DNA from: an uncultured Candidatus Melainabacteria bacterium
Lineage (GTDB): Bacteria > Cyanobacteriota > Vampirovibrionia > Gastranaerophilales > Gastranaerophilaceae
DNA length: 64,000 bases
Assembly: GCA_947090755.1 (NCBI GenBank)
Contig: CAMUPF010000006.1
Span: 1 to 64,000 of the forward strand
Reading direction: 5' to 3'
This document shows, in pieces, positions 1 through 55,922 of this stretch. Made by a program: the position numbers and the translations under genes. Positions within the stretch are counted from its first letter, which is position 1. Every line of letters starts with the position of its first letter. Below the pieces are notes generated by a model that was not told where the DNA came from, did not search any database, and saw only the letters and a list, made by a program, of their open reading frames with translations.

Positions 1-392
1 CGCTTGTACCCGCAGTTGCGTCTGCAAGCTGGTAGGTTCCATAACCACCAAGTGACGGCATTAGTGCCAAACCTTGAGAAAACCGTGCATAAAGTGCTTT
101 TCGCTGTGTGTTCCACGTACGTTCGTTAATGTTGCCCGTCAAACTAGGCAAAGTAATCGCCGCAACTACGCCGATAATCGTTAATGACAGTAAAATCTCT
201 GCCATCGTGAATGCAACGACTGCGCCTCGCGTAAAACGCCGCCGCTCGCGCTTGCGCCGAAAGCGCGGTTTCGCCGTCGCGCGCTCGACTCTCCACTTGC
301 TAAAGCAAGTTACGCGGCTCTGCTCGGCTTGCCCCCCCCCCCCTACTGTTCAGGCCCATATTACAAGGGGTTTCAAGGATTTGTTTTTTCAT
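1..392 (-). CDS. Prepilin-like protein, copy 1 (partial, runs off left edge; G-tract out of frame)
   Basis: Type IV pilin/pseudopilin-like protein; only the 5' part is in the window. The prepilin motif FTMAE (cleavage before F, Glu at +5) and hydrophobic helix are encoded from about 211 downward, followed by the family segment NINERTWNTQRKALYARFSQ. The ATG at 392 is chosen because GGAGG lies six bases upstream. It reads a short polar leader into 12 G (343-332). As assembled this frame stops soon after the tract (TAG); with 11 G it runs open for 62 codons into the Met of FTMAE. The leader holds GC-rich inverted repeats such as ACTTGC-TTTA-GCAAGT. I infer an exported pseudopilin under slippage control; export by a type II or type IV pilus machine is family knowledge, and no machine genes are in the window. 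Confidence 0.75.
332..343 (-). repeat. Homopolymer G12 tract in prepilin leader (copy 1)
   Basis: Twelve C on the plus strand, so twelve G in the mRNA, lie between the SD-backed ATG (392) and the FTMAE motif. The ATG-to-pilin-Met distance is 187 bases, one more than a multiple of three, so loss of one G restores the frame. Confidence 0.9.
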
Positions 393-2842: not shown

Positions 2843-3679
2843 CTAAAAATCAATAATCCTTTCATCGCGGTTTTTCTTTTGTTTTTTCGGCTGCGGCGTA
2901 ATATTAATCTGTTCTTCAAGTTGTTCTTGAAAATGCTTTTTAATCTTCATTTCACGATAAAATTCTTCTTTTGAAGCGAAACCGCCGTGCAAGTTACGGT
3001 ATTTGATGATTTTTTTCGCGATAATAACGCTTATGCCGGGAAGTTTTGCCAGTTCCGTTTCATCAGCCGAGTTAATGTCAACTTTGACGACTTTGACGGT
3101 CGTAAGTTTGATAGGTTTTTCGGTTTCAAAGGGGATTGGAGATTTCTTCACCGGAACCGGACCGGTTTCGTGAACCTCAAAGTTTTCTTTTAAAATTTGT
3201 ATAATTCCTGCGTAATTTGCGTCTTCTGAAAACGAAAGGCAAATGTTATCAAATGTTTTTTCGAAAAAGTTGTCGTATTTTTCAAGTGCGGATTGGGGGT
3301 GTTCATTCCACAGAACTGTTGCAGCGCGGCCTTTAACTTTGTTGTCCACACAACTGAGGGTTTTATTCTGGGTATCCATTACAAGAATTACGTTAAGGTT
3401 TTTGAGCGTTAAAATATACTTATCTTTAGACAGGAATTTCCGCGCGCGTTTTAATGCTCTTTGACGGCGGATGTTTGCGCGGATTCTATTGCTTAATGTG
3501 TTGTATGAGCCGTATGAACTATATCCGTCCTCAAAATCATCCTCAAAAAATTCATACATACGGTTATAACGCCGCCGGCCAAACATGGACGCGTAACGAT
3601 TGTATCTGCTATCAGGGATAAATATTCCCATTAATAATTGAATTATAAACGCAATGACTATTATAACCAGTCTGAACAT
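2843..3679 (-). CDS. Membrane-anchored helix-hairpin-helix (ComEA-like) protein
   Basis: 278 aa. Residues 1-20 form one hydrophobic segment, followed by a basic, tyrosine- and arginine-rich stretch. The C-terminal part contains a ComEA-type HhH motif, VDINSADETELAKLPGIS followed by AKKIIKYRNLHGGFAS, a DNA-binding fold found in competence and repair proteins. The middle (about 80-180) matches nothing I recognise. The protein probably sits in the inner membrane. Role in DNA uptake is possible but not shown. It is co-transcribed with the radical SAM gene. Confidence 0.7.
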   Translation of the reverse strand: MFRLVIIVIAFIIQLLMGIFIPDSRYNRYASMFGRRRYNRMYEFFEDDFEDGYSSYGSYNTLSNRIRANIRRQRALKRARKFLSKDKYILTLKNLNVILVMDTQNKTLSCVDNKVKGRAATVLWNEHPQSALEKYDNFFEKTFDNICLSFSEDANYAGIIQILKENFEVHETGPVPVKKSPIPFETEKPIKLTTVKVVKVDINSADETELAKLPGISVIIAKKIIKYRNLHGGFASKEEFYREMKIKKHFQEQLEEQINITPQPKKQKKNRDERIIDF

Positions 3680-3743
3680 TCTATAACCGACCTTTTTAAT
3701 TTCTATTATACACCAAAATTTTTGTTTATGGTAGAATAACCTT

Positions 3744-14390: not shown

Positions 14391-15642
14391 ATGAACAAAA
14401 GAGATGTATTAACTTATGCAGGGGGGGGGGGGGAGCCGGCTGAGCCGGACCTCTAGCATAGACCCGTGCGTGCGGACGAAGAAACCGGCGAAGCGTGTTA
14501 GCGGATGTGAAGTGCCGGTGCGGCCTCACGCGAGTGAGGACGGCAGGGCACGAAACTGGACGATGCCGCCGTTGCGACCAGAGCGTGAGCGTCGGGAGCG
14601 GACAAATCGCGCAAGTGTTGATAACACTTGCAAGGGATTTGACAGGCGGGAGAACCAACGTTGCGCATTCACAATGGCAGAAATCCTTCTATCCCTAACA
14701 ATAATCGGCGTAGTGGCTGCGATAACGCTTCCGTCACTGACCGGAAACATTAACGAACGCACATGGAACACACAAAGAAAAGCGCTTTATGCCCGTATGA
14801 GTCAGGCAATCGCGTTAATGCCGTCACTAAACGGTTATGGAACTTTAACCGAGGGTAATGATTCAACATCTGCCGTGGATACGGCCGCCGAAACTTTCGT
14901 CACAGAAGGACTTTCCAAAGTTCTTAAGATTAACAACATCTGCGACTATAAGCATTTGGAAGACTGTGGTATTCCATCCAATATAACTCCGTATTCAGGT
15001 AGTATTATTGCTAAATTTCCGGAAACATTAAAGGATTATAATAACAGTCTGGTTTCTGTTTCTTTTATTGACGCTGCCGGCGGAACTTGTTCATACTCTC
15101 AAACCAATACTAAAGTCGCAGCGTTTGAAACACAAAACGGTGAGAGTATAGCCGTTTATTATAATCCGAATTGTTTGTCAGATTTAAAATCCGGTGATGC
15201 TTGGGATCCGGTACAGGCACGTCTGTGTGCTAATTTCGTCTATGATTTAAATGGTACTAAGGGGCCTAACAGTTACGGAAAAGATATAGGGTTTATTTCA
15301 GTATTTTATCCGACGGATAGTGATGTTGTTGCTCCGTATGTATATATGCATGATTCCGGCTCTGCACCTCAAGTATCTTCTGGGAATGAACAAAGTGCTT
15401 CCGAGCTTTGTACAGCTACTCTTGGCGGAGAGTATAGGGTTCCAAATAAAAATGAAGCGGCCGCTATGTTTGTTAACAGAGTGCTGATTGGCGGAAGTTT
15501 TATTGGCGAACACTACTGGACTTCCGGCATAGGTATATATAACGGTACAACCAGAGGCTCGGCGCAATCAATGTATTCAGGCGCCGAATTGTTAAAATTA
15601 CGCTCGGAATCTGTAAGGGTTCGTTGCGTAAAACGTAATTAA
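14391..15642 (+). CDS. Prepilin-like protein, copy 2, with long repeat-bearing leader (out of frame at G13)
   Basis: The mature part starts at the FTMAE motif (ATG of MAE at 14674): cleavage before Phe, Glu+5, then a hydrophobic helix and NINERTWNTQRKALYARMSQ. The C-terminal domain has NICDYKHLEDCGI, a CANFVYDLNGTKGPN-like block, RVPNKNEA, YWTSG and RVRCVKR, recalling the Lcl/FISUMP lectin-like end. The start at 14391 is chosen for AGAAAGGA and the promoter. In this assembly it enters 13 G and stops at TAG; with 12 G the frame is open to 15642. An ATG at 14416 is in frame now but lacks an SD. The leader would be about 92 residues, mostly encoded by a structured repeat. Probable exported pseudopilin; function unknown. 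Confidence 0.75.
14421..14433 (+). repeat. Homopolymer G13 tract in prepilin leader (copy 2)
   Basis: Thirteen G ten codons after the SD-backed ATG. Twelve would put ATG 14391 and the FTMAE motif in one frame. The hairpin CCGGCTGAGCCGG begins three bases downstream. Confidence 0.92.
14437..14655 (+). repeat. Structured GC-rich repeat inside the prepilin leader (repeat copy D)
   Basis: The hairpin CCGGCTGAGCCGG and a GC-rich arm are followed by the repeat core at 14509-14559: AAG-TGCC pairs with GGCA-(CGAAA)-CT, enclosing the hairpin CTCAC-GCGA-GTGAG and the conserved GGCAG. Downstream come a second stem region, the palindrome AAGTGTTGATAACACTT and the end TTTGACAGGCGGG, both shared with the copy between rplW and rplB. 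The whole repeat has no stop in the pilin frame, so it is translated when the leader is on. Confidence 0.7.
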
Positions 15643-25833: not shown

Positions 25834-26842
25834 ATGAAAAACAATATTGTAGACATTTCGACAGGGGGGGGGGGGGAGTGCCTTAACAGGCACATCTAAA
25901 CGCTTAGCGTTTACCATGGCTGAAATTCTTCTATCCCTAACAATCATCGGTGTGGTCGCTGCGATAACGCTTCCGTCTTTGACCGGTAATATTAACGAGC
26001 GCACATGGAACACACAACGCAAAGCGCTTTATGCCCGTTTCTCTCAGGCAATTGCCCTTATGCCGGACGTGAACGGGTACGGTACGTTGACAGAGGGCAC
26101 GGATTCAAGCGGCTCAAAAGTCGTTACCGAAGACACAGTTGCCGAAACTTTCGTTACGGAAGGCTTGTCTAAAGTTCTTAAAATAAACAATATCTGCGAC
26201 GCTGCTCACCTTGCTGACTGCGGAATTGTTAGTACTATTAATACCCAAACTTCTGCTGTTTCTACACCGGTTGATTGGTCGGGCTTGAATTCGCAGATGG
26301 TTAGTACTCAATACGGCGGTTGGACATCTTACTCGATGATTAATTCAAAGGCGGCGGCATTTGAAACACAAAATGGCGAAAGCATTGCGGTTTATTATAA
26401 TCCTGCCTGTCGAACATCTGCGGATTTGGTTACGGGATATCTGGTGGCGCCATTTGTTTGTGCCAATTTTCTGTATGACTTAAACGGAAATAAAGGCCCT
26501 AATACTGTCGGCAAAGATATTGGTTTTATAACGGTGCTTTATTCCGCGGATTCCAATGTTGTTGCGCCGGTGCCTTTAATTCAAACTAAGGCCGGTTACT
26601 ATGAAGACGCCATAAAATTTTGCCGTAGTCAGGATGATGCGCGGCTCCCGAATAAAGAAGAAGCTATTTCATTGTGGCTAAACAGGAAATTTTATGGGGG
26701 TATAAATTATATATTTTATACAAGTTCTTCACCCGGTGCCGCAAATAGAATCATAATTATTGACGCACCAAATGGTGGTATGATGGGTTCTTGCAATAAA
26801 ACAGAATCCAATGGTGTTGTTGCAAAATGTGTTAAACGATAA
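25834..26842 (+). CDS. Prepilin-like protein, copy 3 (out of frame at G13)
   Basis: Start at 25834 chosen for the promoter, AGAAAGGA and a leader like those of the other copies. Reading through 13 G it stops at TAA (25897); with 12 G the frame runs MKNNIVDIST-GGGG, a short basic piece and LA|FTMAE, giving a 25-residue leader, the most conventional of the set. The pilin part from ATG 25916 has the usual helix, NINERTWNTQRKALYARFSQ, NICDAAHLADCGI, CANFLYDLNGNKGPN and RLPNKEEA, ending AKCVKR. Two palindromes (GTGCCTTAACAGGCAC, AAACGCTTAGCGTTT) lie in the translated leader. An exported pseudopilin is inferred. Confidence 0.78.
25864..25876 (+). repeat. Homopolymer G13 tract in prepilin leader (copy 3)
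   Basis: Thirteen G directly after codon 10. The distance from the ATG to the FTMAE Met is 82 bases, one over a multiple of three. Confidence 0.92.
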
Positions 26843-34040: not shown

Positions 34041-35441
34041 TTAACGTCTGTCCAGTTTTTCATTTTTATAAGCCAGAAATGCCATCGTGAAGCAGACTAT
34101 TGCAAAAAATACTCCTACGCTCATTGTGTAATGGAAAGATTTTAAAAACGCCTCGTTATACAACAGGTTCTGGTGGAGGAATAGTGATTTGAAACTTGCA
34201 AACAGGGTTATTGTAATCGCCACTCCTAAAATGTTTCCTACGTTTCTTGCAAGTGCCAGAATCCCGCTTGCGATACCGAGTTCGGGCTTTGGAACATTTG
34301 ATAAAATAGCGTTGTTAGACGGCGATTGAAACAGGCCGTTACCGATTCCCATAAATCCTGAAACAAATATGATTAAAAGCGTTGAAGTAGATTCATTAAA
34401 TGTTATAAACATCAAAAGTGATAAAATATAAATTCCCGCACCGCAAAGTGTAATGTATTTGCTTCCGTGTTTTCCCGCGTAACGGCCTGCAAACGGCGCG
34501 GTTATTGACAGAACAACGGCATAAGAAAGAACCACAAGTCCGGTTTTCATCGGGCTGTAAAGCAATATTTCCTGCAAATAGAAAGGTAAAAGCACGCTGT
34601 TTGTAAACATAGCCATATATGACGTCATAATCGCGAGATTTCCGAATGTAAATTCGCGTATTTCAAAGAGTTTGAAGTTTATCATCGGATATTCAATATT
34701 ATGGTCACGCAGGTAGAAAAGCGTTCCGAAAACAAGGGTTATAAACCCGAGAAAAATTATTTTTAATGATGTCCAGCCCCAAACATGGCCTTCTGAAATC
34801 GCGAGCAGCAGCGCCAGAATTCCGACAGAAAAATAGGCAAATCCCAGATAGTCAAATTTGAAACTTCCTTTATGCAGAACGTGTGACGGCAGTAGTTTAT
34901 ACGCGAAATACGCGCCTGCCAGCGCAATCGGAATACTCGGTAAGAATATTGAGTGCCAGCCGAAAAAGTTTATTAAAATTCCGCTCAACGCAGGCCCGCT
35001 CAAGCCGCCGATTGCAACAACGCAGCCGTTAAGTCCTAAAGCTTTGCCGCGTTTTTCACTTTTGAAAATAGACGCGATGATTGCAGGCGCGTTCGAAATC
35101 ATAATCGACGCTCCGACGGCCTCGATACATCTATATAATACTAATAAATAAAAATTATTAGCCGTAAAGTTTAAAAATGAACCCAGCGCAAAAAGTAAAA
35201 ATCCTGTTGCATAAAGTTTATTTTTCGGCAAAATGTCGCCAAGTTTGCCAAAAAACGGTAATAACACAGTCAAAATCAGCATATAAGCGATTACGACCCA
35301 CTGGATTTGTTCAAGCGAAACTCCCAAATCCGTGGACATTGCGTATAAAGCAAGGTTAACCGTTGTGGAGTCGAACATTCCGAGGAAGTTCCCGACAACA
35401 GTAATAACAAAAATTGTCCATTTTAAACTTTTAGTACTCAT
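34041..35441 (-). CDS. MFS drug transporter, DHA2 (EmrB/QacA) type, 14 TM
   Basis: 466 aa with about 14 hydrophobic segments. The start WTIFVITVVGNFLGMFDSTTVNLAL, with Asp in segment 1, is the DHA2 motif D1 (family LDxTVVNVALP). The RCIEAVGASIMISNAPAI and GLSGPALSGILINFFGWHSIF segments correspond to motifs B and C of proton-driven exporters. Substrate unknown. No EmrA-like adaptor is next to it. Confidence 0.88.
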   Translation of the reverse strand: MSTKSLKWTIFVITVVGNFLGMFDSTTVNLALYAMSTDLGVSLEQIQWVVIAYMLILTVLLPFFGKLGDILPKNKLYATGFLLFALGSFLNFTANNFYLLVLYRCIEAVGASIMISNAPAIIASIFKSEKRGKALGLNGCVVAIGGLSGPALSGILINFFGWHSIFLPSIPIALAGAYFAYKLLPSHVLHKGSFKFDYLGFAYFSVGILALLLAISEGHVWGWTSLKIIFLGFITLVFGTLFYLRDHNIEYPMINFKLFEIREFTFGNLAIMTSYMAMFTNSVLLPFYLQEILLYSPMKTGLVVLSYAVVLSITAPFAGRYAGKHGSKYITLCGAGIYILSLLMFITFNESTSTLLIIFVSGFMGIGNGLFQSPSNNAILSNVPKPELGIASGILALARNVGNILGVAITITLFASFKSLFLHQNLLYNEAFLKSFHYTMSVGVFFAIVCFTMAFLAYKNEKLDRR

Positions 35442-35472
35442 ACGAAATTAATTTTATCACAAAGAAAAAGGA

Positions 35473-35501
35473 TTGACTAAAGTGAAAAAATAATACATAA
35501 T
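35473..35501 (+). promoter_or_regulatory. Promoter of prepilin copy 4
   Basis: TTGACT (35473-35478), 17-base spacer, CATAAT (35496-35501). AGAAAGG follows at 35510, seven to ten bases before the ATG. Confidence 0.8.
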
Positions 35502-35526
35502 AACATTATAGAAAGGTAGGTTAAAA

Positions 35527-36607
35527 ATGAAAAACAAACTTGTAAGTATTTTGTCAGGGGGGGGGGGGGCCGGCTGAGCCGGTTCTATATACGGGTTCCG
35601 AGCTTGCGGACGACGTGAAATTTAGCGCGAAGGGCGGAGAGCCGGCAAAAGCCGCCTTTACTATGGCCGAAATCCTCTTATCATTAACAATCATTGGCGT
35701 GGTTGCTGCGATAACTTTGCCGTCGCTAACGGGCAACATTAACGAACGCACATGGAATACACAACGCAAAGCGCTTTATGCCCGAATGAGTCAGGCAGTA
35801 GCGCTAATGCCGGCGTTAAATGGCTATGGCACTTTAACCGAAGGTAACGAATCCGCATCTGCCGTGGACACCGCGGCTGAAACCTTTGTCACAGAAGGAT
35901 TATCAAAAGTTCTTAAGATAAACAATATCTGTGATGCTGACCATATCCATGATTGTGGTATAGCTTCAATTGTCACTACTATGACCGGTGTAACTACTGC
36001 GGTGCCGAAAAAATTAAGTGAATTAAATCCTTCACTTACGTCCGTATCTTTCTATGATTCAGCTACCATAGGACAGGGAAATTACAGCGCAATAGATTCT
36101 AAAGCTGCAGCATTTGAAACACAGAATGGTGAAAGTATTTTGGTGTTCTATAATCCAACCTGCTCAACGATGGATGTGGATGTAAACAGAAAGTTCGTTC
36201 AGCCTAAAATTTGCGCTAATCTGGTGTATGATTTGAACGGTAACAAAGGCCCTAATACAGTCGGTAAAGACATCGGTTTTATGACGTTCATATCTTCGGT
36301 TGACTCTGTTGTGGCTGCGCCTGTGCCGTACGTGAGAAGGTTTGACGGTATAAAAGTCGAATACGCTTCTTCTACCTGTACAAATAGTGCGGGTGGAGAA
36401 TACAGGATCCCAACTATGGAAGAAGCTGCAGCTTTGTTTGTAAATAAAAATCTTATTCGTGAAGATTGGCCAAACGGGCACCTCTGGACATCAACCAAAG
36501 TGACCAAATCCGGTTACCTGACAAATTATGTAATGGTGATGGGGCATGGTGAGTATAGAATTCCCGTTCCTAACGCGGGGTGGAGTTTATTATGCGTTAA
36601 ACGCTAA
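35527..36607 (+). CDS. Prepilin-like protein, copy 4 (out of frame at G13)
   Basis: The ATG at 35527 follows the promoter and AGAAAGGT. As assembled it meets TGA right after the 13 G; with 12 G the frame is open: MKNKLVSILS-GGGG, then about 29 residues encoded by GC-rich palindromic sequence, then KAA|FTMAE, a 43-residue leader. The pilin from ATG 35663 has the helix, NINERTWNTQRKALYARMSQ, NICDADHIHDCGI, ANLVYDLNGNKGPN, RIPTMEEA, LWTSTKV and LLCVKR. An in-frame ATG at 35615 gives an open frame now, but has no SD. Probable exported pseudopilin. Confidence 0.77.
35557..35569 (+). repeat. Homopolymer G13 tract in prepilin leader (copy 4)
   Basis: Thirteen G after codon 10, followed at once by CCGGCTGAGCCGG, a hairpin. 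Twelve would open the frame. Confidence 0.92.
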
Positions 36608-36613
36608 AACCTT

Positions 36614-36640
36614 TAGGGCCGCAACCTTTTGCGGCCTTTT
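36614..36640 (+). terminator. Terminator after prepilin copy 4
   Basis: GGCCGCAA and TTGCGGCC pair around a short loop, followed by TTTTA. Confidence 0.8.
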
Positions 36641-36650
36641 AAAATTCCTT

Positions 36651-43184: not shown

Positions 43185-43191
43185 TGTAAAG

Positions 43192-43202
43192 CCCCCCCCC
43201 CC
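43192..43202 (-). repeat. Homopolymer G11 tract upstream of prepilin copy 5
   Basis: Eleven C on the plus strand directly before the codons for GFTMAE on the minus strand. Confidence 0.9.
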
Positions 43203-43276
43203 TCACCGGGAAGCCACAAAAATCAGGGGTTTTCAGACTTTTGGTTTTTCATAGTTTAATCCTTTCTTTTTTAATT

Positions 43277-45413: not shown

Positions 45414-45718
45414 TGAGTAAGAATACAAACATTGAAAAATTATACGGAATTATCAAAAAACCGTTAATCACTGAAAAATCTATGATGGCAACATCATTAG
45501 GACAATATACATTCGAAGTGCAAAAAGATGCAACTAAAATCGAAATTGCACAAGCAGTAGAATTAGCTTTTCCTGGAAGAAAAGTTAAAAAAGTAAGAAC
45601 AGTTTACATGCCATCTCACGCAAAAAGAATGGGCTTGAAACAAGGCAGAACTGATTCAAGCAAAAAAGCAATCGTAACCATCGAAGGTGATCCGATTGAA
45701 GAGATTGTGGGTGTTTAG
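45413..45718 (+). CDS. rplW: Ribosomal protein L23
   Basis: 101 aa. IIKKPLITEKSM, YTFEVQKDATKIEIAQAVELAF and VRTVYMPSHAKRMG are L23 blocks; it lies at the tunnel exit and docks SRP and trigger factor. Its ATG overlaps the rplD stop (TAATG). Confidence 0.96.
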   Translation: MSKNTNIEKLYGIIKKPLITEKSMMATSLGQYTFEVQKDATKIEIAQAVELAFPGRKVKKVRTVYMPSHAKRMGLKQGRTDSSKKAIVTIEGDPIEEIVGV

Positions 45719-45873
45719 CCTGCGTCAGCCGGTGTAGCGCCGGTGTCGACACGCGTGAGCGTGGCGAGCAGGGCGCGGAACACTACGTCACCGCCGTTGT
45801 GAGCGAGAACGAAAGTGAAGCGAACGAACAAATTTTACAAAAGCAAAGTTTTTAGGAAAATTTGACAGGCGGG
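45719..45873 (+). ncRNA. Candidate structured RNA repeat, copy B, between rplW and rplB
   Basis: Core 45734-45786: GTAG-CGCC pairs with GGCG-(CGGAACA)-CTAC, enclosing CACGC-GTGA-GCGTG and GCGAGCAG. A second half follows: CCGCC (about 45791) can pair with GGCGG near the end TTTGACAGGCGGG, enclosing variable stems. Shares both halves with the copy in the prepilin leader at 14437 and the first half with copy C after rplR. It adds over 150 bases to a spacer inside a ribosomal operon. Confidence 0.7.
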
Positions 45874-45950
45874 AAAAGTTAATACATTATGGGCGCAGCC
45901 GATAAATGCGCAGAAGGTAAAAAGAAAGCCAAAACAAAGGAGAAAACAAA

Positions 45951-55414: not shown

Positions 55415-55783
55415 ATGATTAAACAAGAAAACAGAAAAGCAAAAGTTCAAAAAAGACACAGATCAATCAGAAACAAAATCTCAGGAACCGCTGAGTTCCC
55501 TAGATTGGCTGTATATAGAAGTACAAAACACATTTACGCTCAATTGATTGATGATGTTAATCATGTAACATTGGCATCAGCTTCTTCAAATGATAAAGAT
55601 TTGAAAGAAAAATTGGCAAACGGCGGTAACATCGAAGCTGCTAAAGTTGTTGGTGAAACAATCGCTCAAAAAGCTAAAAAAGCAGGCGTTGAATGCGTAG
55701 TATTCGATAGAGGCGGATTCTTGTATCACGGTCGTGTAGCAGCTTTGGCTGATGCGGCTAGAGAAGCTGGCTTGATGTTCTAA
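55415..55783 (+). CDS. rplR: Ribosomal protein L18
   Basis: 122 aa. [13 protein letters not shown]-type start ([21 protein letters not shown]), [15 protein letters not shown] and [23 protein letters not shown] are L18, a 5S rRNA binder. The ATG at 55415 has GAAGGA upstream. rpsE, rpmD, rplO and secY, which normally follow, are absent; a structured repeat and a terminator come instead. Confidence 0.97.
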
Positions 55784-55922
55784 TTGCGTAAGCCGGTGTA
55801 GCCACAGCGCAGGCTTGCGTTGAGCAAGACTGGCAGGTGGCGAAACACTATGTCAGCGACGTTTCAATTTCTGCAATTGTTGATAACAATTGCTTAGAAA
55901 TTGTCAGGAGCTTTTGACGAAA
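55784..55922 (+). ncRNA. Candidate structured RNA repeat, copy C, after rplR
   Basis: Core 55798-55851: GTAG-CCAC pairs with GTGG-(CGAAACA)-CTAT, enclosing CTTGC-GTTGA-GCAAG and ACTGGCAG. Downstream, AATTTCT...AGAAATT encloses the palindrome CAATTGTTGATAACAATTG. It begins GCGTAAGCCGGTGTAGCC, close to GCGTCAGCCGGTGTAGCG of copy B. It sits where the normal operon order breaks. Confidence 0.68.

What the first reader, a model, noticed from the sequence alone, without database searches (positions are those of the whole stretch)
35557..35662. Palindromic inserts lengthen the prepilin leader without stops in the ON frame
Leaders before the cleavage site would be about 25, 43, 60 and 92 residues in the ON frame. 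The added lengths come from GC-rich hairpins directly after the G tract (CCGGCTGAGCCGG in two copies, GTGCCTTAACAGGCAC in a third). All read through in the pilin frame. This resembles in-frame palindromic elements such as Rickettsia RPEs, here aimed at a part of the protein that is cut off.
Basis: partly seen in the sequence, partly recalled or inferred. Interest (0 to 1): 0.75.

Follow-up and report, generated by a model that had tools for sequence, protein, structure and literature searches.

The report
In-frame palindromic repeats in pilin leaders
A gut bacterium carries about a hundred switchable pilus genes, and pieces of its repetitive, palindromic DNA have lodged in the throw-away front end of many of these proteins without breaking the reading frame, which gives an unusual natural test of where selfish DNA can hide inside genes.

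Summary
The genome (Candidatus Gastranaerophilus; nearest named relative Ca. G. phascolarctosicola) has 114 FTMAEILL-type prepilin starts, and 85 of 116 pilin loci examined show a poly-G tract upstream. Between tract and cleavage site lie 1 to 246 nt here, and up to 603 nt in congeners. Of 70 distinct leaders of at least 57 nt, 68 are open in the pilin frame; the other frames are open in 3 and 0. Residue -1 is always Ala or Gly. At 20 syntenic loci where leader length differs between two species, 17 differences are multiples of 3. The long leaders are built from dispersed palindromic repeat families that also lie between genes. Identical leaders sit on unrelated pilin bodies, so they behave as cassettes.

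CCGGCTGAGCCGG heads an 87-nt module (or a joint between modules); GTGCCTTAACAGGCAC is mostly the basal 15-nt cap.

Best reading: RPE-like passenger repeats tolerated in a peptide that is cut off. Translation, cleavage and the route of movement are inferred. A regulatory RNA role is not excluded, and assembly chimerism needs long reads. New variant of a known kind.

The parts
35527..35556 (+). Start codon and 10-codon 5' part of the prepilin leader, with agaaagg Shine-Dalgarno upstream
35557..35569 (+). G13 tract; ON needs G12 (mod 3), so OFF as assembled
35570..35656 (+). 87-nt leader module (E4 type) starting with CCGGCTGAGCCGG; one of 10 leaders of this family in the genome; ON peptide PAEPVLYTGSELADDVKFSAKGGEPAKAA
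35657..36607 (+). Pilin body FTMAEILLSL..., C-terminal C-type-lectin-like domain
14421..14667 (+). G13 tract plus 234-nt leader: CCGGCTGAGCCGG head plus E3-like element; open in the pilin frame
25864..25909 (+). G13 tract plus 33-nt leader containing GTGCCTTAACAGGCAC
212..343 (-). G12 tract plus 120-nt leader holding an E1 element (type B 5' end); body cut by the window start
43191..43202 (-). G11 tract plus 1-nt leader: bare site without an element (type B)
45717..45890 (+). Intergenic E3 element between two ribosomal protein genes (start approximate); absent at the orthologous place in L100
55783..55915 (+). Second intergenic E3 element, just after a ribosomal protein stop codon

Best explanation
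Each of these prepilin genes has three blocks: a short start, a slippery G tract that sets the frame, and a leader that ends at the prepilin peptidase site. The stretch between tract and site is a tolerant pocket. It is read only in the ON frame and is then cut off (inferred). Dispersed palindromic repeats of at least three families (E1, E2, E3 here) have lodged there, alone or joined, and whole leaders have been exchanged between paralogues as cassettes bounded by the tract and the FTMAE codons. What is retained must keep the frame (length a multiple of 3 in type A genes; in type B genes the tract length shifts to compensate), hold no stop in that frame, and end in Ala or Gly. The leader peptide itself is otherwise unconstrained: the same module is read in different frames and on both strands. 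So this works like Rickettsia palindromic elements, but concentrated in the disposable part of one phase-variable gene family. Shown by sequence: the blocks, the open frame, the -1 residue, the presence or absence between species, the dispersed copies, the mosaic. Inferred: slippage in cells, translation, cleavage, neutrality, how the repeats move.
For: 68 of 70 distinct leaders of at least 57 nt open in the pilin frame, off frames 3 and 0 of 70; both exceptions carry their own Shine-Dalgarno and ATG. 39 of 41 in this genome against 8.8 expected. Type A: 54 of 57 leader lengths are multiples of 3, in 16 distinct lengths. Residue -1 A/G in 112 of 112 (G000) and 87 of 87 (G004); off-frame control 17 of 156. 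Syntenic pairs with G004: 20 of 21 differ in length, 17 of 20 by a multiple of 3; examples 87 vs 15, 141 vs 15, 27 vs 399 nt. Leaders at least 97% identical sit on bodies 48-60% identical, the level of random pairs, and flank identity downstream is at the random level from the first 15 nt. Places in this genome: E1 23 leaders, 1 intergenic, 1 contig end; E2 8 leaders, 5 intergenic; E3 4 leaders, 9 intergenic, 1 not examined. Intergenic copies carry a stop in the projected frame in 11 of 16. No amino-acid conservation: single-base codon changes are mostly non-synonymous, e.g. 81 to 7 in the 87-nt family. One prepilin peptidase gene, PF01478. G005 has 1 pilin and no E1 or E3.
Against: E1 is nearly confined to leaders here, more than a passenger landing at random would give, so descent by cassette copying or a role in leaders must be assumed. 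Hairpins of E1 and E3 show compensatory changes, which suggests that structure is kept. 9 of 41 leader-to-leader projections also show a stop because modules are read in different frames, so the contrast with intergenic copies is weaker than 11 of 16 alone suggests. Paralogous leaders are not independent: the 70 fall into 19 families by shared 12-mers, 17 with an open founder. Short-read assembly breaks at these leaders, so some leader-body pairings could be chimeric. Window loci 14421, 25864 and 35557 are OFF as assembled. No expression or protein data.
Confidence: 0.6

Rival explanations
1. The palindromes are kept because they act as RNA or DNA structures, for example hairpins just downstream of the slippery tract that tune translation, mRNA decay or tract slippage.
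For: E1: 95.2% of cells paired, 8 of 19 pairs changed on both sides, 0 of 500 shuffles as high in covariation score. E3: 7 of 19 predicted pairs with both-side changes. Some leaders fold far below shuffles, z -3.5 to -5.9.
Against: 34 of 73 tract-bearing G004 leaders are a bare 15-nt cap. Unrelated modules occupy the same place. Folding of the window family is ordinary, z -2.0 to +1.0. E3 covariation includes intergenic copies, so it belongs to the element and not to the leader role. Arm correction between palindrome arms could give covariation without selection. No Rfam match.
Confidence: 0.25
2. The leader modules are recombination anchors that shuffle pilin genes for surface variation.
For: Identical leaders on unrelated bodies; whole pilin genes gained or lost between species at a conserved locus.
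Against: Identity stops at the leader edge: downstream identity of same-leader pairs equals random pairs from the first 15 nt, so the body does not travel with the leader.
Confidence: 0.1
3. Ordinary divergence or chance palindromes in a GC-rich leader, or an assembly artefact.
For: Leaders are GC-rich, and many contigs end inside pilin leaders.
Against: Open frame against shuffles and off frames, invariant -1 residue, length steps of 3 at syntenic loci in two independent assemblies.
Confidence: 0.05

Closest known systems
Rickettsia palindromic elements (RPE), as described in a review of prokaryotic MITEs (PMC10969869, passages read)
   Same: Repeats of about 150 bp, several families, found between genes and as in-frame inserts in ORFs
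   Different: Here the coding copies found are in one gene family, in the leader expected to be cleaved, beside a poly-G tract; modules are read in several frames and on both strands, with no conserved peptide
Phase variation by homopolymeric G tracts (for example in Neisseria; recalled, and titles seen in search listings)
   Same: Long G tract inside the ORF 5' end, length varying between paralogues
   Different: Here about 70-100 prepilin genes in one genome, with variable inserts just after the tract
[quoted passage not shown]
   Same: Palindromic DNA that codes in frame and spreads among surface proteins
   Different: PARCELs are tandem 25-residue domains kept as protein; here the peptide is not conserved and is expected to be removed
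Type IV prepilins (PF07963)
   Same: F-T-x-x-E start, A/G at -1, prepilin peptidase gene in the genome
   Different: Leaders of up to about 215 residues (603 nt after the tract) instead of the usual short ones (usual length recalled)

Membership tests
Rickettsia palindromic elements | Dispersed palindromic repeat families, intergenic and intragenic | tested here: met
Rickettsia palindromic elements | Insertion in ORFs without frame break or stop | tested here: met
Rickettsia palindromic elements | Insertion into many unrelated genes | tested here: not met
   E1-E3 places in G000 were in pilin leaders or between genes; 2 of 52 undetermined; no recognisable other gene
Rickettsia palindromic elements | Element encodes a conserved peptide | tested here: not met
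   E1 read in different frames and on both strands; changes mostly non-synonymous
Rickettsia palindromic elements | Sequence kinship with RPE families | not tested
   no RPE sequence was fetched
MITE / REP elements | Terminal inverted repeats, target-site duplication, a transposase acting in trans | not tested
   only presence versus absence of E3 at one orthologous gap was seen
Type IV prepilin | PF07963 N-terminal motif | tested here: met
   21.2 bits = cut-off in the six-frame search; 17.5 bits, below the cut-off, when the ON ORF was scanned whole
Type IV prepilin | Gly or Ala at -1 and Glu at +5 | tested here: met
   112 of 112 at -1; E5 invariant in 41 aligned bodies
Type IV prepilin | Leader cleaved by a prepilin peptidase | not testable with these tools
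   only the PF01478 gene was found
Phase-variable gene (slipped-strand) | Tract length varies within a population and switches the frame | tested here: inconclusive
   n varies between paralogues (13, 12, 11, 14, 9); no population reads

The most novel reading that the evidence does not exclude
The leader of this pilin family is a dedicated landing and exchange site: a slippery G tract on one side and the peptidase site on the other let mobile palindromic repeats enter, join and move as in-frame cassettes between about a hundred lectin-tipped pilins, so that the genome keeps a pool of selfish DNA inside translated but discarded protein.
Probability: 0.25. Interest if true: 0.85.

Novelty: new variant of a known kind. 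Interest (0 to 1): 0.72.

Why it matters
It gives a replicated natural experiment on how repeats invade coding sequence: some 70-100 parallel sites per genome, several species, with and without inserts at the same locus. It separates the cost of breaking a frame from the cost of altering a protein, because the peptide is expected to be discarded. It also shows prepilin leaders several times longer than usual, tied to poly-G switching, in an uncultured gut order. My full-text searches brought up no description of it.

Tried and rejected
Small palindromes as the inserts: rejected, because the same position in bare 15-nt leaders of the relative carries the same kind of cap. Stop-in-the-loop cap as a general OFF terminator: looked at by eye on the leaders; many caps lack the stop, so dropped. 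Internal translation start in the leaders: in-frame start with an SD-like motif in only 2 of 85, exactly the two with stops. Known RNA family: no Rfam match at gathering cut-offs for 6 loci or at E up to 5 for the E3 place. Literature by repeat sequence: no relevant hit in the 15 papers listed of 119. Structure: Foldseek gave no match at E below 0.001; the VIA-align second look gave the Legionella Lcl C-terminal domain at Z 11.0, rmsd 1.8, 92 residues.

Rows dropped or not seen: G000 leaders longer than 450 nt could not be detected. 31 of 116 rows showed no tract, 23 of them by my reading because the contig ends there. G004: 87 of its 102 pilin starts were read, and leaders with N were left out of the clean counts. 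One search used N-free distinct leaders from all loci held, a sample enriched for E1 carriers in the relatives.

Full report
What is there. The window comes from a 1.78-Mb genome in 53 contigs. A pattern for FTMAEI(LL) codons occurs 114 times in the genome, and 90, 106, 96, 102, 1 and 91 times in G001 to G006. Of 116 pilin loci found in the stretches fetched, 85 have a tract of 7 or more G within 450 nt upstream. Of the other 31, eight are not at a contig end: three lack a tract and have a short ordinary leader, one has G6, one has an interrupted tract, three belong to another pilin class.

Anatomy. Two 5' types occur. In type A (57 with a Shine-Dalgarno and ATG) the tract mostly starts 27, 30 or 33 nt after the ATG, and ON needs n of 12 (mod 3). 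In type B (21) it mostly starts 46 or 49 nt after the ATG. Window loci 14421, 25864 and 35557 are type A with G13, so OFF as assembled; 343 and 43202 on the minus strand are type B. In type A, 54 of 57 leader lengths are multiples of 3, in 16 distinct lengths from 15 to 246 nt. The exceptions are a G9 locus, a different pilin class and a locus with its own start. In type B the leader length is 0 or 1 mod 3, and the tract shifts with it: n is 12 in 8 of 10 of the first class and 11 in 8 of 11 of the second.

In-frame test. Of 41 distinct leaders of at least 57 nt in this genome, 39 are open in the pilin frame (8.8 expected from dinucleotide shuffles) and 1 and 0 in the other two. With the relatives: 68 of 70, against 3 and 0, and 16 of 16 at 200 nt or more; the longest is 603 nt. 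That longest one, L183, is in the ON state as assembled. The two exceptions, L085 and L093, are the only 2 of 85 with an internal Shine-Dalgarno and in-frame start. The residue before F is Ala or Gly in 112 of 112 here and 87 of 87 in G004, against 17 of 156 in off frames. These features are expected if the leader is translated in the ON frame and cleaved.

Discrete insertion. Matching upstream flanks gave 26 syntenic pilin pairs with G004, 21 with both tracts and no N. One has equal length. Of the 20 others 17 differ by a multiple of 3; by my arithmetic the binomial chance of that is about 3 in a million if lengths were free. Examples: 87 versus 15 nt, 141 versus 15, 27 versus 399. In G004, 34 of 73 tract-bearing leaders are a bare 15-nt cap such as cgcctcttaaccgca. 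So the small palindromes of the finding belong to the cap or head, and what comes and goes is the rest. Leaders of other lengths may differ by replacement rather than insertion, since cap and 5' part also differ between species.

What the modules are. E1 (about 135 nt, two hairpins) has 25 places in the genome: 23 in leaders in either orientation, 1 at a contig end, 1 intergenic. E2 (tgtcatcccgaacttgtttcggga...) has 13: 8 leaders, 5 intergenic. E3 has 14: 4 leaders, 9 intergenic, including two in the ribosomal gene cluster of the window, and 1 not examined. In the relatives, of the 30 E1 loci fetched, 20 had a pilin F within 330 nt, 2 more had very long leaders, 7 lay elsewhere and 1 was at a contig end. 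G005, with one pilin, has neither E1 nor E3. E3 between rplW and rplB (names from my reading of the ORFs) is missing in L100, where the gap is 34 instead of about 169 nt. Intergenic copies hold a stop in the projected leader frame in 11 of 16; 9 of 41 leader-to-leader projections do so too, because modules are read in different frames at different loci.

Cassettes. Among 77 pilins, leader family does not predict body identity (0.544 same family, 0.542 different, z 0.63, on the 43 pilins in families of three or more). Leaders identical over 87-153 nt sit on bodies 50-60% identical. Identity of such pairs is at the random level from the first 15 nt after F, and falls off within about 30 nt upstream of the tract in most pairs. 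Leader family does go with the 30 nt before the tract (0.585 against 0.462, z 6.96), partly because types A and B differ there. Short-read misjoining could add to this pattern. Contigs break at leaders, which shows both that the repeats are hard to assemble and that the assembler often stopped rather than guessed.

Selection. Peptide sequence is not kept: in the 87-nt family single-base codon differences are 81 non-synonymous to 7 synonymous, counted over pairs. Palindromy is kept: in 11 E1 copies 95.2% of cells pair and 8 of 19 pairs changed on both sides, more than any of 500 shuffles in covariation score; E3 shows 7 of 19 such pairs. RNA folding is strongly below shuffles for several E2- and E3-containing leaders and ordinary for the window's 87-nt family. 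I therefore rank passengers first and an RNA role second.

Context. AlphaFold (mean pLDDT 85) and VIA-align place residues 202-316 of the pilin on the Legionella Lcl C-terminal domain (Z 11.0, rmsd 1.8, 92 residues), a C-type-lectin-like fold. One prepilin peptidase gene is present. G tracts within 30 nt of FTLAEV prepilin codons occur in 46 of 288 genomes of the family, in 11 of 41 genera as the tool tallies them. In 78 loci of other genera, 9 of 25 prepilin-like starts have a G tract upstream, with one open leader of 282 nt.

Literature. Seen: passages of PMC5877343 (pili genes in a related genome, nothing on tracts), passages of PMC10969869 (RPEs), abstract and outline of PMC2996958 (PARCELs), a word search of PMC4040986 (no 'pili'). 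The searches listed no report of poly-G prepilins or repeat-built leaders in this group; subscription papers are mostly not held.

Noticed in passing
whole genome G000; G001-G006: About 90-114 FTMAEI pilin genes in each of six congeneric genomes (this one included) but a single one in G005; a very large pilin family in genomes of 1.6-1.9 Mb.
   Followed up: partly
window 35657-36607: The pilin body ends in a C-type-lectin-like domain resembling the Legionella Lcl C-terminal domain; bodies are about 54% identical to each other.
   Followed up: partly
window 35423-36641 versus L100 5778-5814: The whole pilin gene is absent between the MFS and FNT genes in L100, which instead has a pilin between FNT and gpmI: gain or loss of whole pilin genes.
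   Followed up: partly
window 45717-45890, 55783-55915; L211: E3, an unnamed structured repeat with compensatory changes, sits between ribosomal protein genes; no Rfam match.
   Followed up: partly
57 type A and 21 type B loci of G000: Assembled tracts are strongly biased to ON+1 (41 of 57 and 17 of 21) rather than ON or ON-1; unexplained.
   Followed up: no
L088:2660 (G6), L066 (interrupted tract): Two tracts look frozen: the G6 gene is in the ON frame; the interrupted one is not ON from its main start.
   Followed up: no
window 43202-43252, minus strand: The ATG frame of this type B pilin meets a TGA before the tract, unlike its paralogues.
   Followed up: no
L123 around 3444-3736: In another genus a 282-nt open prepilin leader behind a G tract is made of tandem hairpin repeats of a different sequence.
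   Followed up: no
L183, L197: Leaders of 603 and 582 nt also contain a further inverted-repeat element (type cattgcgaggagcg...cgctcgcaatgac), open in frame.
   Followed up: no
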